A stretch of DNA of 20,098 nt. Source: a virus. Shown here in pieces: positions 1,675-16,649 of the stretch. Made by a program: the position numbers and the translations under genes. Below the pieces are notes generated by a model. That model was not told the DNA's origin and did not search any database. It worked only from the letters and a program-made list of their open reading frames with translations. The DNA is taken from the IMG/VR virus record IMGVR_UViG_3300029309_000440, positions 1 to 20,098 of that record; one strand, written 5' to 3'. Numbering within the stretch: position 1 is the stretch's first letter; each line of letters starts with the position of its first letter.

Positions 1675-1895
1675 TGAATAAAGAAACAACATTAGCTAGT
1701 TTTGAAGTTAAGATTACCACAGAAGGATTACTAATCCTTGAAACAAAGTTACCACCTACAGATGAATTTTTAGATGCTATGGATAAGTGGAACCCCTCAT
1801 ATGAAAACACCCCTGTTATAGCAAGCCTTTTGGATTACTACAAAGGGGTGTTTACCGTAATGAGTAAAGATAGTCAGAAAATTATCTCTTCTTAG
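1674..1895 (+). CDS. Hypothetical protein, last gene of the plus-strand operon
   Basis: This 73-aa product is unrecognised. It starts at the ATG of a TAATG junction with the previous gene and is the last gene before the orientation switch. Its 3' end overlaps, antisense, the 3' end of the lysine-rich gene on the other strand by 14 bases. A perfect 10-bp inverted repeat (1805-1814 with 1844-1853) lies inside its coding sequence. Part of the protein (residues 15-30, GLLILETKLPPTDEF) looks beta-strand rich; no signal peptide or membrane segment is seen. The frame is supported by the 1-base junction rather than by homology. Confidence 0.68.
   Translation: MNKETTLASFEVKITTEGLLILETKLPPTDEFLDAMDKWNPSYENTPVIASLLDYYKGVFTVMSKDSQKIISS
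1805..1853. repeat. Perfect 10-bp inverted repeat near the convergent junction
   Basis: AAACACCCCT at 1805-1814 is the exact reverse complement of AGGGGTGTTT at 1844-1853, separated by a 29-base loop. It lies inside the last plus-strand gene, 29 bases before the end of the opposing operon. Neither side is followed by a clear U-tract, so a classic intrinsic terminator is not shown, but a structure slowing or ending one or both converging transcripts is possible. Chance occurrence cannot be excluded. Confidence 0.45.
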
Positions 1896-2196
1896 ACATC
1901 ATCTTTCCGCCACCTCTCATCATCGCTCTTTTCTTTTTACCGCCCATGTTCATGGCTTTCTTTTTCTTTCCACCCATGTTCATGGCTTTTTTCTTTTTGC
2001 CACCCATGTTCATAGCTTTTTTCTTTTTGCCACCCATGTTCATAGCTTTTTTCTTCTTACCTCCACCTTTCATGGTAGGTAATTTTTCATTCTTCATAGC
2101 GGACATTCTACCGCCTAGTGCTTTTTTCTTTTTCATGTTGGCGTTTTTCTTTTTACCACCGCCACGCATACCTGCTTTTTTCTTTTTCATTACCAT
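1882..2196 (-). CDS. Lysine/methionine/glycine-rich tandem-repeat basic protein
   Basis: The 104-aa product is extraordinarily basic: I count 36 lysines and 5 arginines against a single glutamate, with about 19 methionines. Residues 47-86 are four near-perfect copies of a ten-residue unit (KKKKAMNMGG), and degenerate copies flank them. It would not form a normal hydrophobic core. Binding to nucleic acid or to an acidic protein is a reasonable inference, for example DNA condensation or virion packing; similar KKK/MGG-rich short proteins occur in marine phages, without a role known to me. It is the last gene of the late operon. The ATG at 2196 follows an AGGAG site with good spacing and sits 2 bases after the stop of the upstream gene. 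A second ATG two codons downstream is possible. Confidence 0.75.
   Translation of the reverse strand: MVMKKKKAGMRGGGKKKNANMKKKKALGGRMSAMKNEKLPTMKGGGKKKKAMNMGGKKKKAMNMGGKKKKAMNMGGKKKKAMNMGGKKKRAMMRGGGKMMSKKR
1941..2060 (-). repeat. Four tandem 30-bp coding repeats
   Basis: Units at 1941-1970, 1971-2000, 2001-2030 and 2031-2060 each contain CCCATGTTCAT followed by GGCTTT or AGCTTT and a T-rich run on the plus strand. On the coding (minus) strand each encodes the ten-residue unit KKKKAMNMGG. The last two full units are nearly identical, which points to recent duplication or slippage in the A-rich tract. There are no spacers, so this is not a CRISPR array. Confidence 0.9.
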
Positions 2197-2198
2197 AA

Positions 2199-2756
2199 TT
2201 ATCTCCTAATATTAGGTTTAAGTTTTTGTCTTGGAGTAACCACCTCATCGTAGTAATCCATTGGCCAATTTTTATAATAACCCTTTTTGTATAAATGGTT
2301 TGATGCGTCTTGTAAAAGTTTTAATTCTTGCATGAATATCATCATGTAAGGTTCAACTTGACTACTATCCCATTCATTATCTGCTAAAAATGCATGCTCT
2401 TCAACAGTGGCGGGGCTATCGGGATGAAAACACATTAGATAAAGGTTTTCATCTTGCAAAGCAATGTTCCGTGTGTCCACAAAATATTGTATGCAATAGG
2501 GTGAAACATCGTCTACATTAGGGTCTGCAACGACTATTAAATCTTTTTTTTCTTTAGGAAATAGTTTTATCTGTCTTTCAACAGCTTGAAAAAAACTATA
2601 CTTTCTTAAATTTACTTTTATTTTTAATCTGTTTCTTGTTCTAGTGGTCTTGGCATACGGGCACGCAGGAAAATTATTTAGATGTTTATTTGGCTTCTCG
2701 AGTACATTGATACACCAATCTATTACATCATTTTCTATTAATTTTGCTCTGCCCAC
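2199..2756 (-). CDS. Unknown phage protein with four cysteines, faintly DUF1415-like
   Basis: I cannot name this 185-aa protein. It has cysteines at 15, 32, 88 and 109, a PACPYAK segment at 30-36, a DLIVVADP strand at 72-79 and a CFHPD segment at 109-113. The order of a CP(F/Y)A motif near the N-terminus and an FHP motif in the second half recalls the bacterial DUF1415 family, but this is from memory and weak. The C-terminal third is helical and aromatic-rich. The start is a GTG at 2756 in a TAGTG junction with the holin-like gene. Its place after lysis-like genes and before the lysine-rich gene gives no clear role; it is one of the few cysteine-containing products of the late operon. Confidence 0.75.
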   Translation of the reverse strand: MGRAKLIENDVIDWCINVLEKPNKHLNNFPACPYAKTTRTRNRLKIKVNLRKYSFFQAVERQIKLFPKEKKDLIVVADPNVDDVSPYCIQYFVDTRNIALQDENLYLMCFHPDSPATVEEHAFLADNEWDSSQVEPYMMIFMQELKLLQDASNHLYKKGYYKNWPMDYYDEVVTPRQKLKPNIRR

Positions 2757-3268
2757 TATTTCTTGACTAACGAACCACCGAAGTATAGGCCTACTATAGC
2801 AGACATGAGGTGGGTGTCAAGTGGTGTTATAATAACACCTGCAAAGGATTTATCCATTAAGACTTCTTTTTGGTCTATTAAAAATAGAAAACCACTTGTA
2901 AATTCTGTCCATGTTAAGATAACTGGCACATCAAAAAATACAGGAACAAGTTTAGGATATGCGATTACCATGAATACAGCAGTAAGTGCTATTATTCTTC
3001 TTGTCCATTGAAAGCCTTTGTTTTCATACGTTCTAGCTTTCTCAATGTGTTTCATTTGATTATCAGCTCTTGCTAATAACATTTTTTGTTCGTCTTGTTT
3101 TGCTTTGATACTTTGCGACCAGATGGACATAATACCACCTAATACACTAGAACCTAGCATTGTAATCATTTCTACTGGTAATCCACCTAACATATTATTT
3201 ACTCCTTCATCACCTGTTACGTTACTTACTAAATTCACACCCGTAAGTGCTAATAGTATATATTCCAT
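2756..3268 (-). CDS. Holin-like integral membrane protein
   Basis: The 170-aa product has several hydrophobic segments: roughly residues 31-50, 91-111, 115-131 and 151-167, with a charged helical stretch (52-90, rich in K, R, E and Q) between the first and second. This resembles multi-span phage holins, which sit in the inner membrane and permit lysis late in infection, and it ends with a short positively charged tail (VKK). It follows directly, without a gap, a short gene for a TM+coiled-coil peptide, an arrangement seen in phage lysis cassettes. No endolysin is present in the window, so the lysis role remains an inference; a virion membrane-interacting protein is the alternative. The start ATG at 3268 abuts the upstream stop at 3269. 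Confidence 0.6.
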   Translation of the reverse strand: MEYILLALTGVNLVSNVTGDEGVNNMLGGLPVEMITMLGSSVLGGIMSIWSQSIKAKQDEQKMLLARADNQMKHIEKARTYENKGFQWTRRIIALTAVFMVIAYPKLVPVFFDVPVILTWTEFTSGFLFLIDQKEVLMDKSFAGVIITPLDTHLMSAIVGLYFGGSLVKK

Positions 3269-3469
3269 TTAATTGTCTAATTTTTTATTTATATTTTTTA
3301 TCTCTGCTTCTATTACTGCAAGTCTAACTTCCATTTTTGTAAACATTACTATGGCTTCTTCCATCCTATCAATGTCTTGCTCCATAGCGGATATTCTTTG
3401 TGAGGTCATACCCCATGTTACACCTAGTGCTAAAACTACGCCTACAAACCATACAGTATCTTTAATCAT
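3269..3469 (-). CDS. Short protein with one membrane segment and a coiled coil
   Basis: The 66-aa product has a single hydrophobic segment at about residues 5-21 and a heptad-like region at 24-64 (hydrophobics I26, M29, I33, M36, I40 and so on). This design matches small lysis accessory proteins such as XhlA-like or Rz-like peptides, and could also be a membrane anchor for a partner. It lies one base after the stop of the giant ejection-type gene and directly before the holin-like gene, so the two are probably co-translated. No lipobox or long proline-rich tail typical of spanins is visible, so I do not call it a spanin. Confidence 0.65.
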   Translation of the reverse strand: MIKDTVWFVGVVLALGVTWGMTSQRISAMEQDIDRMEEAIVMFTKMEVRLAVIEAEIKNINKKLDN

Positions 3470-3470
3470 T

Positions 3471-6400
3471 TTAATTTACCAACTGAGACAAGCTCGTATT
3501 CATAGTTTTTAGAAAATCATCCTCATATTCTTCTTGATATTCTAATGCTTTTTCTGAACCCTCTCTTAGTAGTATTGCTTTAAATGTTGATTCTTTTAAC
3601 AAATTATAAAACGTTTCTACCATCTTTGGGTCTTGATAGATGTTTTCTGTTTCAAGAATTTTTAAAACTACGTCAGCCATTTTTGGATTTTCTAAAACAG
3701 TTCTAATTAAAACTCCTTTATTTTTTGCAAATCTTCTTATGGCTACTTCCATTGCAACATATCTAGGAGATATAACTCCCCTTGATATTGCAAAACCCCT
3801 TGATAGTAGTGAGTTTAATGATAAAGAATTTGATATAGGCGTTATGTTTATTCTTGATGCATCAGCACCTGTTAGTAATGCTTGAACTCCTAATATGTCT
3901 ACTATATTGTCGTAATGTTCTTTTCCAAAAACTTTTTCTAAAACAACTTTATTTTCTTTTAAATATTTTCTAGCTTCAGCCGTTTGAAAGGTATACAGTT
4001 CACTTACTTGAACCATATCTTTATTTTTTACAGATGCTTTTACGTCATCAGCTACAACAGCAAACTTATCAAAGAAATTTTTAGATACTAAATTTCTAAC
4101 AACTTCATTAAACTGGTCATTTGTTAATTTCTTAGACCCAACAATTGATTTTCTAAGTTTTTCTAAATTATCTATACTACCTGTTGTTATTATTGCATCA
4201 TTAAAAATAGATGGATTTGTTAAATTATCACCAAATTGAAGAATAACAGAATCGTCACTAAAAAATCTTTGATTAAATTTAAAATCTTTTAATCTTTTCT
4301 GCAAAGTTTTTTTAACCTTTTTTAACTCTCTAGCAAATTGTACAGTATCTGTTCTCGCTATATTATTAATTGTAGCGTTACGTGCTATTACCATGTCTAT
4401 TCCTAAGTTCATGTTTATAAGTCCGTTTATATCTACCAAAGATATTCTGTTTTCACCTGCTCCAACAGACATAACTTCATCAAACCCATTAAAAATTTTA
4501 ATTTCTTTTGCGTCAGTTTTTTTAGGAGGATTAACTAAGAGAACTTGTTCTATTTCTTTTTTGTTCATGTACAGTTTTCCTGCATCAGTTCTTCTAAGAT
4601 GAGCGGCAAATTCTTCTTGTAAAAATCTACTTACTATTGTTAATTTTTTCATTGTTTCTGGATTATTAAAATCAATAAAATACCCGGTAGCAGTGCTAAA
4701 ATCTCTATCACCTACTAGTGGTAAGATAACTTCATTTTTAAATTTAAGTGCCTCTGTTTCACTACTCATTATTTTACCCCAGTCAATCCAGTCATAAGGT
4801 GATTCTTTATGAACATAGCTAGGAACTTTAATATCATCTGCTCCAGATATTTCATTTACTATCTTAGTTCCCTCTTCATTAATTGCTTGAACTCTTTCTA
4901 ACTCGGAAGTAGCATTTCCTGATGCATCTTGTTTTATATCTATCTTAGAACCTTGTCCGTTGTAAGTTGTCCAACCTCTTAATGTAGCAAAGTTGTTAAA
5001 TCTACTGTAAAAATCAGCGTAAGTATTTACAGCATCAGCATAATCCTTTGATAGTTGAATATTATTTTCTTTACTTATTGACGCTAATAGGGAGTTGTCT
5101 ATTTCAGTAAACATGCTTGCATAAATATTACCTTTAGTTTCGCCGGCCATTGCTTTATTCATAGCACCAACTCCAGATTTAAATTCCATCGCTTCTTGTA
5201 GGTTTAGCATTAGTGGTATGTCACCTCCTAATGCGTCTCTAACATCTAGTGCAAGAATGTCTGTTATTCTCTTATTTTTGTAATTAGGATAAGTTGCTTT
5301 TAAGTTTTCTTTCATAGCATTAAATACTTTTTCAGCATTAGGCGGACTTAAATCTAAATTCATCCTAAGAATACTTAAAAGCTCTTCATTTATTACAAAT
5401 GTTTCTTGACTTAATCCGGGTATAACTTCACTTGGGTCGTCAAAAAATTTTATTAGTTGTGCACGATTATTTTTGTCTGATATAAATTCTATCATATTTC
5501 TTTTTGCAGACATTTCTATTATATTTATTAAATTATTTGTCTCATAAGAACTTGGAAAATTACCAGTGTATGCACCTATTGGATTTTGATTTTTTGTTCC
5601 TTTATTTAATCTTTCTACTCCACCTTGTTTTTCAACTATATCATCAAAAAATTTAGTAAAGTCTATTCTAACATTAGGGTTGTTATTAAATAAGTTAAGA
5701 TATTTTTCTCTAGCACCTAATTTGTAGAAAGTATAAAATCCATCAACCATGCCAGAAAACCAATTAGAGTTGTAATTACTACCATCAGCATTTAATCCTT
5801 TACCAATGTTGTCAAAATGTGTTAGTATTTTTGTGTCTAGCTCTTTTATTTTTTCTATAGCTTTTTTTTGTATTTCTGGTGTAGTGCCGTTTTTTGATAA
5901 ATGCTGTAACTCATCAAAAAATTTCATCATGTTTAAATTGTTAATATCTGTTCCATCAAACATGTTGCCAGTTCTTACATAATTCTCTACAACATCAAAA
6001 ACTTCTAATAACTCTAACTCTCTTTGTGCTATGCTTTCTTGAGACTCTTTAACAACTATATTTATTTTTTCTGCAAACTCTGTAAAATTTGGATTTAGAG
6101 CAGGTTTTTTCATAAACTTCTCTAAGTTTGCTTGAATTTCTCTTAAAACAACTTTTGTGCTATTAATGTAATCATTACCTTGAACTAGCATGTCACTTGT
6201 TAAATTACCGGCGGCAACTTTTACCATGTACATTTCATCTATGGCTTGTAAAGTTGCTAAACCTGTAAATTGACCAAACATTAATTTTACTTCGGCCGCA
6301 TCTTCACCACTCATTCCTAAAGTTAATTTATCAAACTGCTTATTTAATTCCTGCATCCTACCTATTACTTCTGCTCTTCTCTTTGGAGGTAAATTTATTA

Positions 6401-8408
6401 ATAAATCTGTAAATGCTCTTAATGCTTTTGTTTCTTTTAAAGTAGGAACTCTTTCTAATCCATCATCACCCAATATTTTTAAATCGTCAAAATTAATATT
6501 TAAGTATGCTGATTTACTCATTGTTGATAAATTATCAACAAATTTTGAGTTAAACGTTAACATGTTTGCTGTATTTAAAAGACTAGCCGCATGAGTCAAC
6601 GCACTTTGAAACATGCCACCAAATCCTCTTTTTTTAAGTATTCTAGGTTCAAAAAATGCACCGCCTAATTCAGATGCTATTGCCGCACCACTATTTATTC
6701 CAAAAAAGTAGTCTCCAACTCCACCAAAAGTTGAGGCAAATATTTCGTTTCTAAACAAACTTTTTTCAAATGTAGTAAAGTGTTTTACTTGAAGACCTAC
6801 TTGTTTTGCTACTAAAGTTTCTTTTCCTAATAACAATTTTTCAACTAAATTATTATCACCTTTTTTAAGAGCTTTTTTAATTCGTTCATCTATAGAATTT
6901 ATTTCATCTAACAAATTAATTTGTAATTTTTCTTTGCCCGATTTAGTTAACAATTGTTTTTCAAATTGTCTTTGTACTTTTTTAATAAATTTGTTGGTAG
7001 AATTTTTACCATACACTTTTGTAAATGCTTCTTTTTGAAAAAATGCATTTAATGCCTCAATTGGGTTTGCATATTTTAATCCGGGCCCAGAATTTTTTAA
7101 TGAGTATTGTAATGCATCATCTGCTATTTTTGTTCCGCCTAATCTAAACGCTCCTAAAATACCGTTTAGTGTTGCAACATAAGGTATCGCTTCTGCTGAA
7201 GTATCTGCTATGTGAAATAAAATAGATTGGTCTGGATTTTGAACTGCTAACTCTTCTAGTAATTTGTCATCCATTACAAAACTAGTATTATTTTCTACTA
7301 ACGCTTTGTATAATTTTTTATGCGACATAAACAGAGTATTAGTGTTTTGCATAGTGTCAAACATTTCTGTCATACCAACTATTTTTGCTGTGTAATTTTC
7401 TTCTTGTTCAAAGTATTCTTGTGAGTCCTCTAATATTTGTTGATTACTTTTAAATGTGTCAGTTTCAATTCCATTGGCATATACATATGGACTCAAAAGT
7501 TTGTCGTCAGGTTTACCTCCATGTTTATAATTATATTGTTTTATACCTGCTACTCCAAGGCCTGTTATGACGGATGGAAAATCACTGGTAATTCTACCCA
7601 TAATTTGAGTAAATTGTTGAAAGAAAGATGCATCGCCTTCGGTAGGTATTAAGTAAGATAAGTCTTTTGTTTCTTCGTGATACTTAACTTTGCCGTCTGC
7701 TCCAACATAATAGTGAGACTCTTTTAATTGGTCTTGTAAATTTTTTGCTTTGTCTGGGTCTAAGCCTAATTCTGCTAGTTGAGCTTCATATAGTTTTCTT
7801 TGTTTTAAATCATCTGGCCCAGTAACAATTGGTAAAAAATCTCCAAAAAGTGTTTGAAAAGTATTTAATTCTTTTTCTTTACTTACATCTAATTTATATG
7901 ATTTTCCATTTTTAAAAGCATATCTAACACCTTCTGTTTGAAATAAATTTCCAGATGCCTCTCTATTTTCAGTTATTTCAATAGTTTCATCTTTACCATT
8001 TTGTATGGCATATATTTTAGATAACTTATCTTCCATAGAAGTTAAACCTAAATCATTAATTGATAAAGGTATAATACCATCTTTATATCCTACAGGTATT
8101 TCTCCTTGTAACATTTTTTGAAAATCTTTTCTTTCGGGGTCAAAAAAAGTTTGATATTTTGGATGTAAATTTAATAATGCAGGTTGCATTTGATTTCGAT
8201 AAAAAGAAGTTATGTCTTTACCTAAACCCATGTCTTGTATTTCTTCAAGACTAACAACTTTATCGTCTCTAGGTGGTTCTTCTATTATTGGTTGAACATC
8301 CTTTTTAGATACAATATTATCTGGGTTAAATTGTTTGCCAACAAAACCCTGTTCTACATCTACAGGCTCTATTTCTTTTTGTATTTTATTTAAGTTTAAT
8401 TCTTCCAT
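3471..8408 (-). CDS. Giant internal virion / DNA-ejection-type protein, about 1645 aa
   Basis: This very large protein is inferred to be an internal core protein ejected with the DNA, by analogy with T7 gp16 (1318 aa): it is the last and largest of a set of proteins whose sizes and order resemble T7 gp14, gp15 and gp16. I see no lytic transglycosylase signature, so unlike T7 gp16 it may lack peptidoglycan cleavage. The N-terminal 60 residues are charged and proline-containing; a hydrophobic glycine/alanine-rich stretch around residues 560-630 could touch membrane; the rest is mostly helical. It contains no cysteine at all. The frame is open from a TTG at 8420, but the ATG at 8408, one base after the upstream stop (TAATATG), is the likelier start. 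The C-terminal region with SRGVISPRYVAMEVAIRRF resembles marine podovirus internal proteins as I remember them. Confidence 0.8.
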   Translation of the reverse strand: MEELNLNKIQKEIEPVDVEQGFVGKQFNPDNIVSKKDVQPIIEEPPRDDKVVSLEEIQDMGLGKDITSFYRNQMQPALLNLHPKYQTFFDPERKDFQKMLQGEIPVGYKDGIIPLSINDLGLTSMEDKLSKIYAIQNGKDETIEITENREASGNLFQTEGVRYAFKNGKSYKLDVSKEKELNTFQTLFGDFLPIVTGPDDLKQRKLYEAQLAELGLDPDKAKNLQDQLKESHYYVGADGKVKYHEETKDLSYLIPTEGDASFFQQFTQIMGRITSDFPSVITGLGVAGIKQYNYKHGGKPDDKLLSPYVYANGIETDTFKSNQQILEDSQEYFEQEENYTAKIVGMTEMFDTMQNTNTLFMSHKKLYKALVENNTSFVMDDKLLEELAVQNPDQSILFHIADTSAEAIPYVATLNGILGAFRLGGTKIADDALQYSLKNSGPGLKYANPIEALNAFFQKEAFTKVYGKNSTNKFIKKVQRQFEKQLLTKSGKEKLQINLLDEINSIDERIKKALKKGDNNLVEKLLLGKETLVAKQVGLQVKHFTTFEKSLFRNEIFASTFGGVGDYFFGINSGAAIASELGGAFFEPRILKKRGFGGMFQSALTHAASLLNTANMLTFNSKFVDNLSTMSKSAYLNINFDDLKILGDDGLERVPTLKETKALRAFTDLLINLPPKRRAEVIGRMQELNKQFDKLTLGMSGEDAAEVKLMFGQFTGLATLQAIDEMYMVKVAAGNLTSDMLVQGNDYINSTKVVLREIQANLEKFMKKPALNPNFTEFAEKINIVVKESQESIAQRELELLEVFDVVENYVRTGNMFDGTDINNLNMMKFFDELQHLSKNGTTPEIQKKAIEKIKELDTKILTHFDNIGKGLNADGSNYNSNWFSGMVDGFYTFYKLGAREKYLNLFNNNPNVRIDFTKFFDDIVEKQGGVERLNKGTKNQNPIGAYTGNFPSSYETNNLINIIEMSAKRNMIEFISDKNNRAQLIKFFDDPSEVIPGLSQETFVINEELLSILRMNLDLSPPNAEKVFNAMKENLKATYPNYKNKRITDILALDVRDALGGDIPLMLNLQEAMEFKSGVGAMNKAMAGETKGNIYASMFTEIDNSLLASISKENNIQLSKDYADAVNTYADFYSRFNNFATLRGWTTYNGQGSKIDIKQDASGNATSELERVQAINEEGTKIVNEISGADDIKVPSYVHKESPYDWIDWGKIMSSETEALKFKNEVILPLVGDRDFSTATGYFIDFNNPETMKKLTIVSRFLQEEFAAHLRRTDAGKLYMNKKEIEQVLLVNPPKKTDAKEIKIFNGFDEVMSVGAGENRISLVDINGLINMNLGIDMVIARNATINNIARTDTVQFARELKKVKKTLQKRLKDFKFNQRFFSDDSVILQFGDNLTNPSIFNDAIITTGSIDNLEKLRKSIVGSKKLTNDQFNEVVRNLVSKNFFDKFAVVADDVKASVKNKDMVQVSELYTFQTAEARKYLKENKVVLEKVFGKEHYDNIVDILGVQALLTGADASRINITPISNSLSLNSLLSRGFAISRGVISPRYVAMEVAIRRFAKNKGVLIRTVLENPKMADVVLKILETENIYQDPKMVETFYNLLKESTFKAILLREGSEKALEYQEEYEDDFLKTMNTSLSQLVN

Positions 8409-8409
8409 A

Positions 8410-10827
8410 TTATTGTCCAAAAATTTGTCTTACTGGTACACCTCTAAATTCTGGAGGTCTTTCTTTATCATATGGTTGAATTTCAAAATCATCCACAGAT
8501 AATTCTTCTACATCGTTAGCCATTTCGGCATAAATATCACTAGGTATGTACCGTGCACTACCTTGAACGTATCTACCATTTTCACGTTCAATGTATATTG
8601 GTGTGCCATTAGTTGCACGCACAACCTCCCAACCATTAGAATTTAAATACATATTTGATTGATATAGTTTGGCTACATCATCATTAGCATTAAGGCCAAT
8701 ATTATTTCTTTCTTCTTGTACTGTTTTAAATCCATTAGCAGAAAGTTCCATACCACCGTTTGCGGCTATTGCTGATAGTAGTTGTTGAGTTGCATCATGA
8801 GTTCTAATGTTTTTCATGGTGTTGCCTCCTGCAATAAATCTTGTTTTTAATTCTATGCCTTCTAAAAATTCTCTTATAGTAAATAAAGACTCCATTGTTT
8901 TTTCTGGAGTATCAAAACTAAAAAAATTATCAGATAGTGATAGTCCTTTTAAAATATTTTCTACGTCTTGGTCGGATATGGTTCTACCACCACTACCGCC
9001 TTGTAGTGCCATGGAAACTTGATAAGCTAAAGTAAATTTTAACAAAGTTAATTTTGCTTTTTTCTTTGCGGCATCACTATAAATACCCTCGTTGTTAAAT
9101 ACAATGTTACCTGCTTCCATAATTTGTTGTGAGTATTTTTGAATTGACTCTGTTGCTTTAAGCCCATCCTCATTAACAATACTTAAACTATTTCCAAGTT
9201 TATTATCAGAACCATCAAAAAAAGAGGCTAGTGTTTTAAATTGTTCAGTACCACCATATACAGCCGCTACTGCATTTAATGATAATCCTAATAATTTATC
9301 ACTACCTTTGTTTTGATTAACAACATTTATTAACATATCTGTTGTTGATATTGCTTGTTTTGCAGATGAATTTTGTAGTATGTAATCTTTTATAACAAAA
9401 TCTTCACCTCTTCCATAAGCATTAGGATTGTTAGAACCTGCAACAAAACTAGAACCCGGAACGTATAAAGGAAACTCTGATTCTGGTTGTATCAAATGTA
9501 AAAATTTTATTAAATGCTCTTCACCTTGAATGTTTCCTGCCTTATCAATAGTTAACAAACCTATATCAAATGCCTCCGCCGCAAATTTATTATAATCAGT
9601 TGCTAAAGTAATTTTGTCATGCGGTGATTCTTGAACTGCATTAAAATGGTCGTATAATTGTAAAACTTTTAAATCTATACCTGCTGTTTCTACAGTTGAC
9701 ACTAATGTTTGACCATCTTCAAAAGCACTCATGTTATTTACCATAGAGGAGAAAAATTTATTTTGGTTGGCTATTTTGTTATTAATATCTACAAGTGAAT
9801 TAACAGCTATGTTAAACTCGTCTGCAGTATTAAAACCAGATTTTTTTACGTACGCTTCCTCATCGTAAACTCGTGCTGATATTACTGTTTCTGGCCCATC
9901 GCCACCATCTACTACTTGTGATTCAATTAATACATCTTTGCTATCAACGTTCATGTTTTCTGAAGCATGTTTTTTAATTGATTCTTTTAAGTTAATACCC
10001 AAGTAATCTGCCATATCTACTAAATTATCAATATCGTATCTTCCAAATATATCTCTATACTTACCTTCATTGCCTTCAGTTGTCATCGCTATAGAATCTA
10101 ATAATAAAGAAAAATTTGCATTAATGTCAGTTTGTAATTTTTGTTTATCTTCTAATTTCATCTCATCAATTAATTGTTTTGTAAGATTAGTGTTTAAGTA
10201 TGCTAAAAAAGTTCTGTGTCTTGTGTTTACATCACTGTAATCTTTAAAATTAAATGATAGATTAGGCCCATATTTTACTACACCCTTTTGTTGATTTTTT
10301 AATAATTTTTCATATTCTAAATCCATTTCAAGATAAAATTTTTCTTTTTCCCAATCTAACTCATTAATTTTATTATCTTGTTTAAAAGTTTGAATAGATT
10401 TATCAAAATCAAATTTTTCGTTTTCTAATTGATTTTGTAATATCCCTAATTGAAAGCTATCAGTGGTAGATTGTATTTTATTATTTATATCTTTTATTTT
10501 TAAATCATGGTCTTTTAACAATACTTTATACTTATCACCCCACACTGCTCTATCAAAACCTAGTTGGTCTACGTTTAATTGATGCTCTAAACCAAAAACA
10601 TATTTGTTATGTTCATGTACCGCTCTATCTAAATCAATTCCTTGTTGTTGTAGGCTAATATTATCATTGTGTTTTTGTTGTTCAAACAAAAGCTCATTAT
10701 ATGCTTGTACTTGTTCTGCTTCAAGTTTAGCTTGGTCAATTTTATATTGATTTGCTAGGTCTATTTCTTGTCTAAATTGACTAGATGCCCCTCCTAAAAA
10801 TGAAAATAATCCGCTTGCAAAACTCAT
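8410..10827 (-). CDS. Internal virion protein with long N-terminal coiled coil, 805 aa
   Basis: The protein is comparable in size and position to T7 gp15 (747 aa) and sits directly before the giant gp16-like gene, so a role in the internal core and DNA ejection conduit is inferred. It starts with a short hydrophobic patch (SFASGLFSFLGGASS, residues 2-16), followed by a long charged helical region at about 17-190, rich in Q, E, D and K with regular hydrophobic spacing, likely coiled coil. The remaining 600 residues look globular and mostly helical, ending in a proline- and acid-rich tail (PYDKERPPEFRGVP). There is no cysteine. The ATG at 10827 overlaps the previous stop as ATGA, with GGGAGA upstream as ribosome binding site. 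No sequence similarity to gp15 is claimed. Confidence 0.75.
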   Translation of the reverse strand: MSFASGLFSFLGGASSQFRQEIDLANQYKIDQAKLEAEQVQAYNELLFEQQKHNDNISLQQQGIDLDRAVHEHNKYVFGLEHQLNVDQLGFDRAVWGDKYKVLLKDHDLKIKDINNKIQSTTDSFQLGILQNQLENEKFDFDKSIQTFKQDNKINELDWEKEKFYLEMDLEYEKLLKNQQKGVVKYGPNLSFNFKDYSDVNTRHRTFLAYLNTNLTKQLIDEMKLEDKQKLQTDINANFSLLLDSIAMTTEGNEGKYRDIFGRYDIDNLVDMADYLGINLKESIKKHASENMNVDSKDVLIESQVVDGGDGPETVISARVYDEEAYVKKSGFNTADEFNIAVNSLVDINNKIANQNKFFSSMVNNMSAFEDGQTLVSTVETAGIDLKVLQLYDHFNAVQESPHDKITLATDYNKFAAEAFDIGLLTIDKAGNIQGEEHLIKFLHLIQPESEFPLYVPGSSFVAGSNNPNAYGRGEDFVIKDYILQNSSAKQAISTTDMLINVVNQNKGSDKLLGLSLNAVAAVYGGTEQFKTLASFFDGSDNKLGNSLSIVNEDGLKATESIQKYSQQIMEAGNIVFNNEGIYSDAAKKKAKLTLLKFTLAYQVSMALQGGSGGRTISDQDVENILKGLSLSDNFFSFDTPEKTMESLFTIREFLEGIELKTRFIAGGNTMKNIRTHDATQQLLSAIAANGGMELSANGFKTVQEERNNIGLNANDDVAKLYQSNMYLNSNGWEVVRATNGTPIYIERENGRYVQGSARYIPSDIYAEMANDVEELSVDDFEIQPYDKERPPEFRGVPVRQIFGQ

Positions 10828-11396
10828 ACTCTATCTCCCATATTTATAAAACCTTCAGCAGGTGGTTCTTTGTCAACTTCTTCTGTGTTATCTTTTTGAT
10901 TTAAAACAGATGCTAGTCTCTGATACTCCGTAGGATTTCTCTCTTCCATAACTTTAAGAGTTGTTTCTTTAGACATCATCTTGCCATCTTCTTCTGTATT
11001 TTTGTTAGTGAACATTACAACCGGAACTTTGTTTTCAATTGCTAATCCAACAAAATAAACTGATAGTGCCGGCTTTATAACTTCAGCAACATCTGGTGTA
11101 AACTCTCCATGTGAAAAACCGGCTAGTCCTACAGTGTTTACTATTTCTTCTACTGTTATTCCAGATGCCATCATTCTTAAAAAATTTTCTTTTGTGTTTG
11201 CACTAGACTCAACTTTGTCAATAACAAAATCTACAACTTTATCTGGGTCTGTCATTCTTGGAGGTCTATCCCAATCCCATTTATCCGGAGCATCAGTTAA
11301 AGAGTGTCCGGGCACAGGAAAATTAAGGGGGTCTACTGTTGCTTGTTGTGCACCTTGTTTTACATTATTATCTAATTTATTTATATTGTTTCTCAT
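10824..11396 (-). CDS. Putative virion structural protein, 190 aa
   Basis: The N-terminal region carries FPVPGHSLTDAPDKWDWDRPP (residues 26-46 as a whole; key parts PVPG-SLT and W-RPP), a pattern I recall from small structural proteins of marine cyanophages and pelagiphages. After it comes a helical domain containing GITVEEIVNTVGLAGF and FTPDVAEVIKPAL (about 78-110), and a charged, flexible C-terminus from 145 on. No cysteine, signal peptide or clear membrane span. It lies between the 204-aa and 805-aa genes of the ejection-type set and overlaps the latter by four bases (ATGA), so it probably belongs to the same virion substructure. Its exact role is unknown. Confidence 0.65.
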   Translation of the reverse strand: MRNNINKLDNNVKQGAQQATVDPLNFPVPGHSLTDAPDKWDWDRPPRMTDPDKVVDFVIDKVESSANTKENFLRMMASGITVEEIVNTVGLAGFSHGEFTPDVAEVIKPALSVYFVGLAIENKVPVVMFTNKNTEEDGKMMSKETTLKVMEERNPTEYQRLASVLNQKDNTEEVDKEPPAEGFINMGDRV

Positions 11397-11400
11397 GTTA

Positions 11401-12015
11401 TTATACTCTTAAATTTTTTTTAAGGTTACTACTTCCTATTTTAATTGTTGTTCCTCTAGAACCTTCAGCGTATAAAGCACTACTGTCAATTCTACCGTTA
11501 TCAACTAAATCATTCATGTATGATGCCATATTAACCAAACTCTCTCTAACTCTATTATTGTTAAAACCCGGATTAGAAGCTACGGATGTTGTAAAACTTC
11601 CAGTGTTAGTCATTTGATTAAATCTATTTCCTGTGTATCTTTCATTTAGTGCTTTTAGCTGTGCAATATACTCGTCATTAGCATCTGGCACTCTCTCACC
11701 TTTTTTATTTATTGTTGTTCCAACCATACCTTGACCAAATTTAACAAGCGGATTATCAGAGTATTTTTTTAAACTATCTGCTACTGCAAACATTCCTGTA
11801 GCAGGTTTAGTATAGTCTTTCGTTCCCATGCCGTATTTAGAAAGTTCTACAACTTGACTAGGACTACCAACAAAGTTTTTTAACTGATTATAAACAGCAG
11901 GGCCATATTTATAACCTAATAGTGCGGTGCCAGTTATAGCCGCCGCTTTTCCGAGGTCAAGTTTTTTTAATTCGTTTGGAATAACGTCATCTAAAAAATC
12001 TCTAATAAATCTCAT
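11401..12015 (-). CDS. Putative small internal virion protein, 204 aa
   Basis: By size and position this corresponds to T7 gp14 (196 aa), the smallest internal core protein, which forms the outer-membrane part of the ejection channel. The similarity is positional; I see no sequence match. The protein has an N-terminal helix (residues 1-20), a weakly hydrophobic alanine/glycine-rich segment at about 22-42 (DLGKAAAITGTALLGYKYG), and a polar remainder rich in N, S and T with a basic end. It contains no cysteine. The ATG at 12015 is preceded by TTAGGAGA, a good ribosome binding site, and 8 bases separate it from the upstream stop. Confidence 0.6.
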   Translation of the reverse strand: MRFIRDFLDDVIPNELKKLDLGKAAAITGTALLGYKYGPAVYNQLKNFVGSPSQVVELSKYGMGTKDYTKPATGMFAVADSLKKYSDNPLVKFGQGMVGTTINKKGERVPDANDEYIAQLKALNERYTGNRFNQMTNTGSFTTSVASNPGFNNNRVRESLVNMASYMNDLVDNGRIDSSALYAEGSRGTTIKIGSSNLKKNLRV

Positions 12016-12023
12016 AATGTCTC

Positions 12024-13400
12024 CTAATTAAATAAATTAAATATACCTTTAACAACACCACGACCCAATTCTGCTAAAGTTATATCTTTAGTTTTTTCTT
12101 CATACATCTGTTGGTCAAAACTAGATTCCTGTGCAAACATAGCAACTTGATGTGCACGAGCTTTTGCATTTTCTGCACTTTGCATTAACCACGATGCTTC
12201 ATCTCTATATCGTTGCCATAAATTATTTAGTTGATTTTGATTCATCTGCAACAAGTTTAGTGCATTTAATCTGTTTACTTCATTTTGTAATGTGGTATTA
12301 GCAGTATTAATGTTACGTCTCCACTGCACATTGTTTTGATTTATTTGCAATTGCATGTTTTGATTAAACTTTTCTCTAGAGTCTTGTAATTGAGTTACGA
12401 ACCTAGATTGTGCATTTGCTTGGTCAGTGTTAAATTGCTGTTGTGCCGCTACTCTGTTTTTATTTGCGTTCTCTACTTGTATGCTTAATTCTTTGAAAAA
12501 CATATCAACTTCACTTTGTGTTTTAGCATTAAATTGTCTTGCCGCATTTTCAGCCGCTTGGTCACGGAACAAACCTTGTAATATCCCTTGATACTCTAAT
12601 AAATTTGTTTTTTGTTCATTGTCTAAATTTTTTAAATCTATAGATAAAAAGTTTCTTGCATTGTTTACAGCACCTTGTAATTGTACGCTTAAATTAGCTC
12701 TATCCATTGCCGCAACTGTAGCCGCATTTTGTAATGTAGCTTGTTGTTCGTTAGATAAATTTTTTAAATCTATGGCCGCATATGTTTTTGCATCAGCCGC
12801 CGCAATAGGTATTGCTGATTCTAATACAGCTTGTGTTATAGCCGCAGATGCTATACTTGATGAACCAAGACCACGTTGTGCCATAATAGCAGAAACTTTT
12901 CTTACTGCAGGAGCCGCCCATGCAGGGAGGTCATTTCCATCTTCCATTGATTTAAATAGCTCTCCTAGTTGATACCTTACTGTTGCTTTTTCACTTACAG
13001 TTCCTGTTGCCGCTTGTGCTTGAGCCGCATCTGAAACAGCACCTTGTATGTTACCAACTATTGCTTGAGAATTAAGTGTTCCTCTTGCCGCCTCTGCTTC
13101 TGGCGTATTAGGCAAGGCATATGCCTCGTAAGTGGTTGCAGATGCAGATTGTGGAACTGCTACCTCTAATCCTGTTGTTGGTGCTTGTGCTGTTGCAGTG
13201 CTAGGGTCTGAACCTAGAGCTTGTTGTGCTAATACTTCATTTGCACTTTCTTGCAATAGTACCGGATTTACAACAGTGTCTTTTGGAAGACTAGTATCAG
13301 TATCACCAATTCCTGCTTGTTCTGTAACTAAACTCTCTACTTTTTCTTCAGTAGTTGGCGTTGTTTGTCCACCTGTCTGCATCTTTCTTTTTAATACCAT
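12024..13400 (-). CDS. Alanine/glutamine-rich virion protein with internal repeats, 458 aa
   Basis: The protein opens with a basic MVLKRKMQTGG leader and a disordered T/P/A/Q-rich region up to about residue 140. The segment WAAPAVRKVSAIMAQRGLGSSS through ESAIPIAAADAKTYAA (161-209) matches, from memory, a region common in marine phage structural proteins. From about 205 to 440 it is long helical, very rich in A, Q and N, like an extended coiled-coil or rod. Two copies of a 20-residue repeat around IDLKNL(S/D)NEQ occur at 207-226 and 251-270. There is no cysteine. It is the first of the five-gene ejection-type block, so an internal core or connector-associated role is inferred. The ribosome binding site (AGAAGGA) lies about 10 bases before the ATG. 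Confidence 0.7.
   Translation of the reverse strand: MVLKRKMQTGGQTTPTTEEKVESLVTEQAGIGDTDTSLPKDTVVNPVLLQESANEVLAQQALGSDPSTATAQAPTTGLEVAVPQSASATTYEAYALPNTPEAEAARGTLNSQAIVGNIQGAVSDAAQAQAATGTVSEKATVRYQLGELFKSMEDGNDLPAWAAPAVRKVSAIMAQRGLGSSSIASAAITQAVLESAIPIAAADAKTYAAIDLKNLSNEQQATLQNAATVAAMDRANLSVQLQGAVNNARNFLSIDLKNLDNEQKTNLLEYQGILQGLFRDQAAENAARQFNAKTQSEVDMFFKELSIQVENANKNRVAAQQQFNTDQANAQSRFVTQLQDSREKFNQNMQLQINQNNVQWRRNINTANTTLQNEVNRLNALNLLQMNQNQLNNLWQRYRDEASWLMQSAENAKARAHQVAMFAQESSFDQQMYEEKTKDITLAELGRGVVKGIFNLFN
12591..12782 (-). repeat. Direct repeat with 44-residue (132-bp) period inside the 458-aa gene
   Basis: Copy one at 12723-12782 and copy two at 12591-12650 each encode a 20-residue block with IDLKNL, then S or D, then NEQ. 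At DNA level both share TAAATTTTTTAAATCTAT on the plus strand. The spacing suggests an internally duplicated helical module. Confidence 0.65.
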
Positions 13401-13402
13401 GA

Positions 13403-13597
13403 CTAGTTATCCTTCTTTTTAAACTCCTTTTCAGCTTGTATCGTTGCTTTCAATCTCATGTTTTCTTGTTTTAATCTTGCAACATCTATTTCTAAAGTTG
13501 CTACTCGATTGTGTGCATCATTACGTTGCTGTGCAATTTTACCTATGACTTCTTCATAGATTTTAGGGTCTACGTTACTTGTTTTTTCTTGGGTCAT
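13403..13597 (-). CDS. Short coiled-coil protein, 64 aa
   Basis: The product is almost wholly helical with heptad-like spacing from about residue 13 to 58 (I18, I21, V32, L35, I37, V39, L42, L49), ending in a basic tail. I do not recognise it; small coiled-coil proteins in this position could be virion assembly factors or adaptors. It has the strongest ribosome binding site of the area (AAGGAG, 7 bases before ATG) and is preceded by the only sizeable gap of the operon, which suggests it may open a separately translated, or separately transcribed, ejection-protein group. Confidence 0.65.
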   Translation of the reverse strand: MTQEKTSNVDPKIYEEVIGKIAQQRNDAHNRVATLEIDVARLKQENMRLKATIQAEKEFKKKDN

Positions 13598-13639
13598 TGT
13601 TTCTCCTTGTTAAACGACCACTCCCTATAAAACTCAACA
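13598..13639 (-). promoter_or_regulatory. Only sizeable intergenic gap of the late operon, possible promoter
   Basis: Read on the minus strand the gap contains GAGTTTTATAGGGAGTGG, with TATAGGGAG identical to the initiation part of the T7 RNA polymerase promoter; the upstream T7 recognition part is not matched. A weak sigma70-like pair (TTGAGT, 17 bases, TTTAAC) also exists but would start RNA at or inside the ribosome binding site. The AAGGAG site of the 64-aa gene lies at the downstream end. I consider a promoter possible, not shown. Confidence 0.22.
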
Positions 13640-14140
13640 CTAATTACTTAGAGGGTTGTTAGTGCTAAGTTTTAATTCTTCTATCATAACATCTTGCACT
13701 TCATTTTCTTTTAGTGCAATTGCTACTTGTTTTGATAATTCTGATAATAAACTTTCTAATGTTCTAATAGTTTCATTAATTGGTGCTATGAAAGGTTGTA
13801 TAATAAAAGGTTCTGGTATATCTAACATAGCTATTTGCTCTTTTACTTTACCTATTTCTTTAAACACTAATGTTAAATCAGTAGGTACAATTTTATCATC
13901 CACCTTTTTAATTCTATCAATTAAATCTACTTTGTATTCATTCGCATATAATAATGCTTCATCAATTTTTTTTTCTAATTCTTTGTCTTTTTCTTTTAGT
14001 GGTTTTAAATTTACTGGAGGTGTAGCCTCAATAGCGTCAAGTCTTGAGTTGAATTGACCCCATGTATAGAACCCTCCTCCTATAGCTCCAATCACTCCCA
14101 ATAGTGCCGCATATGTGCTAAGTTTTTCAATTATCTTCAT
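13640..14140 (-). CDS. Membrane-anchored coiled-coil protein, 166 aa
   Basis: The product has an N-terminal hydrophobic segment at about residues 9-27 (TYAALLGVIGAIGGGFYTW), followed by a mostly helical, charged remainder with heptad-like stretches at 30-80 and 100-155, interrupted by a proline-rich DIPEPFIIQPFIAPI region near 106-120. There is no signal peptidase site, so it is probably an inner-membrane protein with one span. It follows two genes with signal peptides and overlaps the preceding one by four bases (ATGA), so the three may act together at the cell envelope. The function is unknown; a lysis accessory or superinfection-exclusion factor is conceivable but not supported by any motif. 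Confidence 0.7.
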   Translation of the reverse strand: MKIIEKLSTYAALLGVIGAIGGGFYTWGQFNSRLDAIEATPPVNLKPLKEKDKELEKKIDEALLYANEYKVDLIDRIKKVDDKIVPTDLTLVFKEIGKVKEQIAMLDIPEPFIIQPFIAPINETIRTLESLLSELSKQVAIALKENEVQDVMIEELKLSTNNPLSN

Positions 14141-15876
14141 TGTCTAAGTGCCTCCAGTTCAGCTAGTAATTTATTCTTCTTACTAGTTATATTTAGTAGT
14201 TTGACTCTGTGTACTTCTACAGGGTCATTAGTTGTGTAGGAATCTAAAGCGACTCCTGCGTATATATCTCCCGAGTAGGAAGATAAATCTATTTGTATAA
14301 ATAACCCTACGTTTGCATTTTCATAAATATCTTCAACAGAATAAAAAGCTATCTGTTTATAAACGTCAAGGCTATTTTCTTTAAAAAATAAATCCTCTTT
14401 TGTTAAGTTTTGAGTTGTTTCTTTTGTAACCTTTGCTATTTGTTTAGCTATAATTTTTAAATTTTTATTTAATTTTTTTTCTACGTTTGCAACATCTGTA
14501 GCAACCCCGTCTTCGGTGTCCACTTTTGCGTCTTCCGATTGTACAGTTTCTTGCTCTCCACTCTCTTCTGCCTGTACTTCTGACTCCTCAGTGTCTTTGC
14601 TATCGGATTTGTCTTCTTCTTTGTTTTCATTTTTTGCTACTTGTTTTTCTTCCTCTACTGTTTCTGTTTCAGTAACTTCTTCCACTGTTTCTGTTTCATC
14701 TTCCTCAACCTTCGAAATGCTTTCTTCCTCCGTTGCGAAACTTTCCAGTGGTTCCTCAAACTCTTCAAAAGATTCCTCAGTAAGTTCGTCATTGAACTCC
14801 TCCTCAGTTATCTCTTCAAAAAACTCTTCGGCAGTTATGCCTTCATCTTCTAGAAACTCCATGAACTCTTCTTCCATGCCAGTCTCTTCTAAAAATTCAG
14901 TAAAGTCCTCCTCAAACTCCTCTGTAAATATCTCCTCTACCATCATTGGCGGAGGTTCCATCATAAACTCGTCTTCAAAAAATACCGTTTCTATTTGCGG
15001 CATTTCTTCAAAACCACCCATATCAAACTCCTCTATTGGAGGTAGTTCATCTATGTAAACTGTTTCTATATCTTCAAAGTAAAACGTGTCGTCAAATTCT
15101 ACTGGTATTTCAAATATAGGTAAATCTTCTTCATACCAATTAAAATCATCTGGTATGTTTTCTACTATATCTGTAATATCACTATCAATGTCATCTATAA
15201 CATCTTGTGTTTCTTCATTTATAGGTGGTATCTCAGTATAAGTAACATCTAACGTAACATTATCTACATCTGGGCCACGATGATAATTATCATAAGCCGT
15301 GCCCGCAGTCTCATTAAACAGTTCTGCTCTTATTGTAAAATCTGTTTGCGTATTTGAGCCTTGAGTATACACATTTGTGTAGTTTGTAAATGTGCCACCA
15401 TTACCGGGTCTACTAGGGTCATGGTCATTTATTTCTCTAACTTGTGTAGATACTGAACCATCAGAACCTGTAACAGTTTGTTTAAGAGTAAGTGTGTTTT
15501 CAATACTGTTCCAAAACCATACATCTGCTCCCATGGTTGAGGTGAAACCTTGATTAACTTCTGATTGTGTTAGATGTCCATCACCAACCAAATCTACATC
15601 TTGATATACATTGTCTTCCTCATGCCCTTCAAATGCTAATACACCACCGCTATCATTCATTCCTGTTTGATATGGAAATCCATTCCAAGCACCATGGGTG
15701 TGAACACCATCATCACCATCTGTTGACCAACCAGTTGTAGTGGTATTACTTCCAGTTCCAAATGTTGAGTTAGTAAGGATGTTACCAGTGTTTATTGTCT
15801 GTGCATTTCCTATACTATAAAGGCACAAAAAAGATAAAGCTATTGAAAACCATATCCCGTAATATAAATATCTCAT
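14137..15876 (-). CDS. Secreted protein with lectin-like N-domain and hyperacidic linker, 579 aa
   Basis: Residues 1-25 form a signal peptide with cleavage likely after GNA (A25/Q26), and no lipobox around C18. Residues 26-215 look like a beta-sandwich, carbohydrate-binding-like domain (NILTNSTFG, GW, GGVLAFEG, VYQDVDL). Residues 201-388 contain no lysine, arginine or histidine, and 73 of these 188 residues are D or E, with repeating EEF, FEE and FLE patterns. A second acidic but lysine-containing stretch runs to about 465, followed by a mixed C-terminal domain (466-579). The mature protein has no cysteine. It would be exported to the periplasm or beyond. Phage virion proteins rarely carry signal peptides, so this may be a host-envelope effector rather than a virion part; the target is unknown. 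It overlaps both neighbours by ATGA junctions. Confidence 0.78.
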   Translation of the reverse strand: MRYLYYGIWFSIALSFLCLYSIGNAQTINTGNILTNSTFGTGSNTTTTGWSTDGDDGVHTHGAWNGFPYQTGMNDSGGVLAFEGHEEDNVYQDVDLVGDGHLTQSEVNQGFTSTMGADVWFWNSIENTLTLKQTVTGSDGSVSTQVREINDHDPSRPGNGGTFTNYTNVYTQGSNTQTDFTIRAELFNETAGTAYDNYHRGPDVDNVTLDVTYTEIPPINEETQDVIDDIDSDITDIVENIPDDFNWYEEDLPIFEIPVEFDDTFYFEDIETVYIDELPPIEEFDMGGFEEMPQIETVFFEDEFMMEPPPMMVEEIFTEEFEEDFTEFLEETGMEEEFMEFLEDEGITAEEFFEEITEEEFNDELTEESFEEFEEPLESFATEEESISKVEEDETETVEEVTETETVEEEKQVAKNENKEEDKSDSKDTEESEVQAEESGEQETVQSEDAKVDTEDGVATDVANVEKKLNKNLKIIAKQIAKVTKETTQNLTKEDLFFKENSLDVYKQIAFYSVEDIYENANVGLFIQIDLSSYSGDIYAGVALDSYTTNDPVEVHRVKLLNITSKKNKLLAELEALRQ

Positions 15877-16649
15877 TCAGCGTGTACGTTTATTATTATT
15901 TTTTCTTCTGTTACTAAATCAGTTTCAATAATTATATTATCTACACTATCTTGTTCTTTTAATGTTTCTAGCTTTGCTTGCTCTTCAGCTAACTTTTTAG
16001 CTAGTTCTTCTTGTTCTTTTTGTATTCTTATAGCTTCTAGTTCAGCATCTATTCTAGACCTTGTTTCTAATTTAGATACATACTTTTCATAGTCTGGTCT
16101 TTCAACATCATATTTATCCCATTGTTCTATAGCATCTTTTCCAATCTTACCTTCAAACGGACACGGGGTGCCTGCCATAAGCATAGCTTCAAAAACTCTT
16201 TCATCTTGACATAGTAATGATACCGCCGCTACTTTCATACCATAATCATATAGCACCTTGCTGAGCTTAATACGCTCACAGTTCAAATCCCTTACATGTT
16301 TTCCGCCAGATACACCAAAACCCAAAGTAGAAACAGAACCACTAATACCCATGCTACAAACATCTTGAGACATTGCAGAGTATGATGGTGCGTTAGCTGA
16401 GTTAACGGGTACATCTGACCCATTTGTAGTAGATGAAGTGGTACTGGTTGTTGTATTGGTTTGGCCACCGGAATAGGTGTTCGTTGTTGTGGATGAGTAA
16501 CCGCCCGTAATTTGTGTATTACTACCGGAAGAATTTGTTTGTGCATTATTGTCATTTGTTGAATCTGAAAATACTGGTTTAGAAAATACTACCACTATCG
16601 TTAGTAATATAATGCTAACTACATTAAGTACATTAAATCTATTAAACAT
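15873..16649 (-). CDS. Secreted four-cysteine marine phage protein, 258 aa
   Basis: A signal peptide covers residues 1-28 (hydrophobic core 9-23, cleavage likely after VFS). Then comes a low-complexity S/T/N/G-rich region (29-85), a compact domain at about 88-175 with cysteines at 98, 124, 147 and 163 (SQDVCSMG, DLNCERIKLS, LLCQDERVFEAML, GTPCPF), and a charged coiled coil at about 192-236. Four cysteines in an exported protein suggest two disulfide bonds. I recall this SQDVC...GTPCP domain from marine phage genomes, always unassigned. It is the first of three successive envelope-directed products, with TAATG and ATGA junctions on its two sides. Candidate roles are periplasmic effector, lysis helper or a surface component; none is demonstrated. 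Confidence 0.78.
   Translation of the reverse strand: MFNRFNVLNVVSIILLTIVVVFSKPVFSDSTNDNNAQTNSSGSNTQITGGYSSTTTNTYSGGQTNTTTSTTSSTTNGSDVPVNSANAPSYSAMSQDVCSMGISGSVSTLGFGVSGGKHVRDLNCERIKLSKVLYDYGMKVAAVSLLCQDERVFEAMLMAGTPCPFEGKIGKDAIEQWDKYDVERPDYEKYVSKLETRSRIDAELEAIRIQKEQEELAKKLAEEQAKLETLKEQDSVDNIIIETDLVTEEKIIINVHAE

What the first reader, a model, noticed from the sequence alone, without database searches (positions are those of the whole stretch)
3471..13400. Five successive internal-virion-type proteins without a single cysteine
The 458, 204, 190, 805 and ~1645-aa products total about 3300 residues and I see no cysteine in any of them, while tail adhesins and other neighbours do have cysteines. 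Proteins that must unfold, pass a narrow portal and refold in the oxidising periplasm would be expected to avoid cysteine. This could be a sequence signature of ejected proteins, useful for finding them without homology.
Basis: partly seen in the sequence, partly recalled or inferred. Interest (0 to 1): 0.6.

Follow-up and report, generated by a model that had tools for sequence, protein, structure and literature searches.

The report
Cysteine-free phage ejection-protein module
Five neighbouring proteins of a marine virus of bacteria contain no cysteine in 3,300 residues because evolution removes it, a mark shared with proteins that other phages push through their tails into the cell envelope; it may help find such proteins when sequence similarity fails.

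Summary
The five products (458, 204, 190, 805, 1645/1649 aa) have 0 cysteines in about 3,300 residues; 36.5 are expected from their own codon-position base use (P~1e-16). TGT/TGC occur 233 times out of frame and never in frame. The window is a fragment of an HMO-2011-like podovirus, probably infecting SAR11. About 38 other contigs carry the module: 6 Cys in 72,127 non-redundant aa against 304-489 expected from a regression on the other 19 amino acids; neighbours have 0.83%. Five isolates have 2 Cys in about 12,400 aa. Unrelated proteins known to be ejected behave alike (T7-like gp15/gp16, P22-like gp20/gp16, SP6, P-SSP7, N4 vRNAP), as do tape measures, while capsid, portal and nozzle of T7- and P22-like phages keep 0.4-1.2%. 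The idea was stated for N4 vRNAP in 2002; a 2022 review of ejection proteins does not mention cysteine. Limits: that these five are ejected rests on synteny and size, without homology or fold match; scaffolds, the P22 needle and some capsids and fibres are also cysteine-poor; phiKZ vRNAP and T4 Alt are ejected yet keep cysteines.

The parts
12024..13400 (-). E1, 458 aa, 0 Cys; Ala/Gln-rich, helical-looking; first gene of the module
   Evidence: distant homologue matches HMO-2011-type isolates
11401..12015 (-). E2, 204 aa, 0 Cys; small protein in the gp14-like position
   Evidence: ORF in the same position has 0 Cys in 26 contigs
10824..11396 (-). E3, 190 aa, 0 Cys; best conserved small protein of the module
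8410..10827 (-). E4, 805 aa, 0 Cys; gp15-like position; invariant core GGTGGRTISDQDVEN in a fast-diverging protein
3471..8420 (-). E5, 1649 aa (1645 from ATG), 0 Cys; gp16-like position, largest protein
13403..14140 (-). two small upstream genes (64 and 166 aa), also 0 Cys; not counted in the module
2756..3469 (-). two small downstream membrane-type genes (66 and 170 aa), also 0 Cys; not counted in the module

Best explanation
The five genes are the internal-virion (ejection-protein) module of an HMO-2011-like short-tailed phage that probably infects SAR11. Shown: the five-gene order is conserved, none of the window's five proteins holds a cysteine, relatives keep this over large divergence, the loss acts on protein rather than DNA, and it exceeds what composition or being a virion protein gives. 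Inferred from T7, P22 and N4: the proteins are packed in the head, leave through portal and tail as largely unfolded chains, and rebuild a conduit across the envelope. A free thiol in such a chain would risk wrong disulfides or cross-links in the oxidising outside and periplasm, so nearly every mutation to Cys is removed by selection.
For: 0 in-frame against 54 and 179 out-of-frame TGY; codon null P~1e-16. About 38 further contigs with the module, 6 Cys in 72,127 non-redundant aa against 304-489 expected; isolates HTVC033P, CHOED, phiM6, Slicky01 and HMO-2011 have 2 Cys in about 12,400 aa. Known ejected proteins behave alike: T7-like gp15 0/11,238 and gp16 1/22,004, P22-like gp20 0/7,486 and gp16 0/5,610, N4-like vRNAP 1/31,490, gp51 0/6,014, gp52 0/1,400, SP6 0/2,487 and P-SSP7 gp15/16 0/2,082. 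Tape measures: lambda 0/853, HK97 0/1089, TP901-1 0/937, T4 gp29 0/590, P2 1/815. The single Cys of most P22-like gp7 sits at residue 17-18, within the N-terminal 20 residues that the P22 record says host OpdA cleaves off. Cys in T7-like gp16 are scattered singletons, one shared by two close relatives. Synteny: after nozzle and fibre genes, size series like T7 gp14-15-16.
Against: No sequence or fold match of E1-E5 to any known ejection protein, so ejection itself is not shown. Scaffold (T7-like 3/4,552; P22-like 0/1,514), P22 needle (2/5,008) and, in this clade, capsid (0/304 in G3) and several fibres are also nearly Cys-free. phiKZ vRNAP (16/2,614) and T4 Alt (3/682) are carried in virions and keep Cys; gp14 of T7, epsilon15 and P-SSP7 keeps Cys2.
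Confidence: 0.72

Rival explanations
1. General avoidance of Cys in all virion proteins, because virions spend long times outside the cell in oxidising conditions; the five are ordinary structural proteins and not a special ejected class.
For: Virion proteins as a whole have less Cys than replication proteins (G3 0.38% against 1.69%); this clade's capsids, scaffolds and some fibres are nearly Cys-free; T7 fibre 0.21% and scaffold 0.07%.
Against: At the 0.38% of other G3 virion proteins the window's module should have about 13 Cys. Capsid, portal, nozzle and tail proteins of T7- and P22-like phages keep 0.4-1.2% while known ejected proteins of the same virions have about 0.00-0.01%; large external proteins such as lambda J (11/1132), N4 gp65 (11/1382) and epsilon15 spike (15/1070) keep Cys.
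Confidence: 0.15
2. A by-product of composition: long helical, Gln/Asn/Ala-rich, partly disordered proteins simply use little Cys.
For: Scaffolds and the P22 needle, also helical, are Cys-poor without being known to pass the tail channel.
Against: Regressions on the other 19 amino acids, cross-validated on controls, predict 304-489 Cys for the module and 6 are seen; T7-like gp16 115-178 predicted, 2 seen; vRNAP 126-225 predicted, 1 seen.
Confidence: 0.06
3. Ejection is right, but the harm of Cys lies in assembly or storage (cross-linking of proteins crowded against DNA in the head) and not in the periplasm or in unfolding.
For: Scaffolds, which never enter the periplasm, are also depleted; TMP of TP901-1, a phage of a Gram-positive host without a periplasm, has 0/937.
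Against: phiKZ vRNAP and T4 Alt are stored in heads and keep Cys, and both enter through contractile tails. Tape measures are stored in tails and not in the head.
Confidence: 0.3

Closest known systems
N4-type virion RNA polymerase (gp50)
   Same: Very large ejected protein without Cys; authors linked this to passage through tail and periplasm (Kazmierczak 2002 as cited in PMC2784036; PMC3915230; PMC3715699). Confirmed here, together with gp51 and gp52.
   Different: No RNA polymerase domain or similarity detected in E1-E5.
T7 ejection proteins gp14/gp15/gp16 (DNA ejectosome)
   Same: Clustered small-medium-large series after tail genes; gp15 and gp16 free of Cys (review PMC8954989).
   Different: No detectable homology by HHalign, no matching fold for E4; five genes rather than three; T7 gp14 keeps Cys2 while E2 and E3 have none.
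P22 ejection proteins gp7/gp20/gp16
   Same: 0 Cys in gp20 and gp16; gp7's only Cys lies in the cleaved N-terminal segment.
   Different: No detectable homology; the P22 set is much smaller.
HMO-2011-type phage structural module (HMO-2011 ORFs 22-25; HTVC033P gp52-gp56)
   Same: Same gene order and E1 homology; 'hypothetical proteins' with 0-1 Cys each.
   Different: E4 and E5 of the window are longer than in the isolates and show no tblastn match to named phages, so those two are equated by position only.

Membership tests
T7/P22-type podovirus ejection proteins | Gene cluster of small, medium and large internal virion proteins next to tail genes | tested here: met
T7/P22-type podovirus ejection proteins | Sequence homology to gp14/gp15/gp16 or gp7/gp20/gp16 | tested here: not met
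   HHalign best probability under 3% for E1-E5; no significant PHROG or Pfam family for the large proteins
T7/P22-type podovirus ejection proteins | Fold of T7 ejectosome proteins | tested here: inconclusive
   E4 model pLDDT 63, no PDB match at E<=0.001; E5 N-terminal part pLDDT 57
T7/P22-type podovirus ejection proteins | Present in the virion and leaving it with the DNA | not testable with these tools
   needs proteomics of full and emptied virions
N4 virion RNA polymerase | Single-subunit RNA polymerase domain | tested here: not met
   no Pfam hit in E4/E5; HHalign to N4 gp50 under 1%
HMO-2011-type phages | Shared structural gene order, homologous E1 and portal | tested here: met
   E1 relatives in HTVC033P, CRP phages, CHOED, phiM6; portal of close relative G3 46-53% identical to HMO-2011-type portals
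HMO-2011-type phages | HMO-2011-type DNA polymerase | not tested
   replication genes lie outside this 20-kb fragment
Cysteine-free ejected protein (proposed signature) | Cys far below same-genome and composition-matched expectation, kept across relatives | tested here: met

The most novel reading that the evidence does not exclude
[quoted passage not shown] It is strong enough to nominate such proteins in unannotated genomes without homology; leftover cysteines are tolerated mainly where they cannot act as a free thiol in transit (cleaved propeptide, possible pairs, fixed N-terminus).
Probability: 0.55. Interest if true: 0.72.

Novelty: new member of a known kind. Interest (0 to 1): 0.56.

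Why it matters
Ejection proteins diverge so fast that homology often fails: the five here match no known family. In 15 genomes or stretches, ranking ORFs by cysteine depletion against the genome's own rate put a known or suspected ejected or tape-measure protein first in all but a few (HTVC010P, parts of phiKZ), and 13 of the 14 ORFs with P<0.001 are such proteins; the other is phiKZ gp181, a tail-associated lysin. That gives a cheap filter for viral dark matter and points to a physical constraint (free thiols during unfolding, delivery or storage) that can be tested at the bench with T7.

Tried and rejected
Chance: rejected. Regional DNA bias: rejected, since TGY is common out of frame. Sulphur saving: rejected (Met normal; enterobacterial phages alike). 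Composition: rejected by regression. Remote homology of E1-E5 to T7, P22, N4, SP6, epsilon15 or P-SSP7 ejection proteins: none. AlphaFold of E4 and of the N-terminal 1100 aa of E5: low confidence; PDB search of E4 found nothing. P22 gp16 in genome contigs found nothing. A rule that leftover Cys come in pairs holds in two lineages of the module (E4 C368/C379; E3 C71/C79) and perhaps in epsilon15 gp15, but single Cys also occur (HMO-2011 E1, phiM6 E3, T7-like gp16), so it is not general. The 6 Cys of the 'between' class appear to come from wrong-strand ORFs; the plus-strand E2-position ORFs have none. Kazmierczak 2002 and the HMO-2011 PNAS paper were not held, so the first is cited through later papers.

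Full report
WHAT WAS CHECKED. Their neighbours do carry cysteine, although several small ones do not, so the cysteine-free run really spans nine genes, 2756-14140. From each gene's own base use at the three codon positions 36.5 cysteine codons are expected (P about 1e-16); from the rate of the other window genes (20 in 3105) about 21. On the same DNA strand TGT/TGC is found 54 and 179 times in the two other frames and never in frame. The avoidance is therefore at the protein level. Methionine is not low, which speaks against sulphur saving.

WHERE IT COMES FROM. The window is a 20-kb virus record with 28-37% GC in 1-kb steps. It has no megablast match in named phages, and tblastn finds no relatives of E4 or E5 there. 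A 51-kb relative (G3) carries the same module and a portal 46-53% identical to portals of HMO-2011-type phages. A distant E1 homologue from L048 matches HTVC033P, CRP roseophages, Vibrio phage CHOED, Sinorhizobium phage phiM6 and others. Low-GC subgroups of HMO-2011-type phages are thought to infect SAR11 (PMC9038755). I therefore read the window as part of an HMO-2011-like podovirus, probably a pelagiphage.

RELATIVES. Profiles found the module in about 38 further viral contigs in the same order. The nearest E5 relatives are 46-47% and the nearest E4 relatives 39-41% identical, and more distant ones fall to 11-20%. E1 and E5 have no cysteine in any contig where they were found; E4 has two in one lineage (L049, L051, L052, L054, L055) and E3 two in L025; the ORF in the E2 position has none. 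After removing near-duplicates the module holds 6 Cys in 72,127 aa, while other ORFs on the same contigs have 324 in 38,921 (0.83%). The isolates HTVC033P, CHOED, phiM6, Slicky01 and HMO-2011 have 2 Cys in about 12,400 aa at the matching genes; there only E1 is tied by sequence, the rest by position.

T7-like phages (48 loci): gp15 0/11,238 and gp16 1/22,004 against portal 0.59%, capsid 0.39%, tail A 0.92%, nozzle 0.57%, fibre 0.21%, terminase 0.81%. P22-like (80 loci): gp20 0/7,486 and gp16 0/5,610 against portal 0.57%, coat 0.60%, gp10 1.2%. N4-like: vRNAP 1/31,490, gp51 0/6,014, gp52 0/1,400 against 1.09% in controls. SP6 0/2,487; P-SSP7 gp15 and gp16 0/2,082; epsilon15 gp15-17 4/2,394. Tape measures, which also leave the tail: lambda 0/853, HK97 0/1089, TP901-1 0/937, T4 gp29 0/590, P2 1/815. 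A regression trained on control proteins and using the other 19 amino acids predicts 304-489 Cys for the marine module, 126-225 for vRNAP and 115-178 for T7-like gp16 (2 seen in that set).

AS A FINDER. Ranked by the chance of so few Cys given length and genome rate, the top protein is an ejected or tape-measure protein in T7, P22, SP6, epsilon15, P2, P-SSP7, N4 and lambda, and E5 in the module-bearing contigs. Of 14 proteins with P<0.001, 13 are of that kind and one is phiKZ gp181. Shorter ejected proteins are missed, and above P about 0.002 false positives appear, such as scaffolds and the N4 capsid protein.

EXCEPTIONS. T7-type gp14 keeps one Cys at residue 2 in T7-like phages, epsilon15 and P-SSP7. 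Most P22-like gp7 keep one Cys at residue 17-18, inside the N-terminal 20 residues that the P22 record says are removed by host OpdA. T7-like gp16 shows Cys only as scattered singletons, one of them shared by two close relatives, as expected for variants that do not last. Against the rule: phiKZ virion RNA polymerase subunits have 16 in 2,614 aa (non-virion paralogues 33 in 2,850) and T4 Alt 3 in 682. Both enter through contractile tails, which fits a danger that lies in the periplasm, but two cases are not a test. Scaffolds, the P22 needle and several fibres and capsids of this clade are also very poor.

WHAT IS SHOWN AND WHAT IS INFERRED. Shown: selection against cysteine in this conserved module; the same pattern in unrelated proteins known to be ejected; most other virion proteins far less depleted. 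Inferred: that E1-E5 are themselves ejected (synteny, size series, signature; no homology, fold or proteomic proof), and that the harm of a thiol lies in transit or the periplasm rather than in storage.

PRIOR WORK. The absence of Cys in N4 vRNAP and its likely role in passage was proposed in 2002 and repeated for roseophages, Achromobacter phages and LUZ7/LIT1. The 2022 review of ejection proteins never mentions cysteine, and my literature searches (an open-access library only) found no statement of the general rule. The finding is thus a new, well-supported member and a broad extension of a known idea.

Noticed in passing
L028:27728-28318 (T7 gp14), L145:11586-12128, L147:10956-11558: T7-type gp14 proteins keep exactly one Cys, at residue 2 (MCW.../MCEPVSI...), across T7-like phages, epsilon15 and P-SSP7. 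A fixed N-terminal Cys in an otherwise Cys-free set may have a function such as modification or membrane insertion.
   Followed up: partly
L150-L229, gp7 homologues: In most P22-like gp7 the only Cys is at residue 17-18, within the N-terminal 20 residues noted as cleaved by host OpdA; the mature ejected protein would be Cys-free.
   Followed up: partly
L049:3129-5771 and L051, L052, L054, L055; L025:3455-4159: The few Cys in the marine contigs' module come as close pairs (E4 C368/C379, conserved in the lineage; E3 C71/C79), possible disulfides.
   Followed up: partly
window 1882-2196 (-): 104-aa Lys/Met/Gly-rich ORF with tandem KKKKAMNMGG repeats; relative G1 has a similar shorter one.
   Followed up: no
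window 14137-15876 (-) and 15873-16649 (-): Two adjacent proteins with N-terminal signal-peptide-like segments between fibre genes and the module; the 579-aa one is very acidic and its only Cys lies in the signal-like segment.
   Followed up: no
L027:5799-8108 (G3, 769 aa): Large Cys-free protein of unknown family between portal and scaffold; phiM6 protein in the same position has 0 Cys in 812 aa, that of HMO-2011 3 in 762.
   Followed up: no
L115:11095-16346 (HTVC010P gp15-gp20): Near-consecutive Cys-free proteins (144, 268, 370, 144, 504 aa) of unknown function in the abundant pelagiphage HTVC010P; candidate ejection proteins by this signature.
   Followed up: no
L119:17835-24548 (phiKZ gp181): 2237-aa tail-associated lysin with a single Cys, the most depleted ORF of that phiKZ stretch; behaves like a tape measure or delivered protein.
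   Followed up: no
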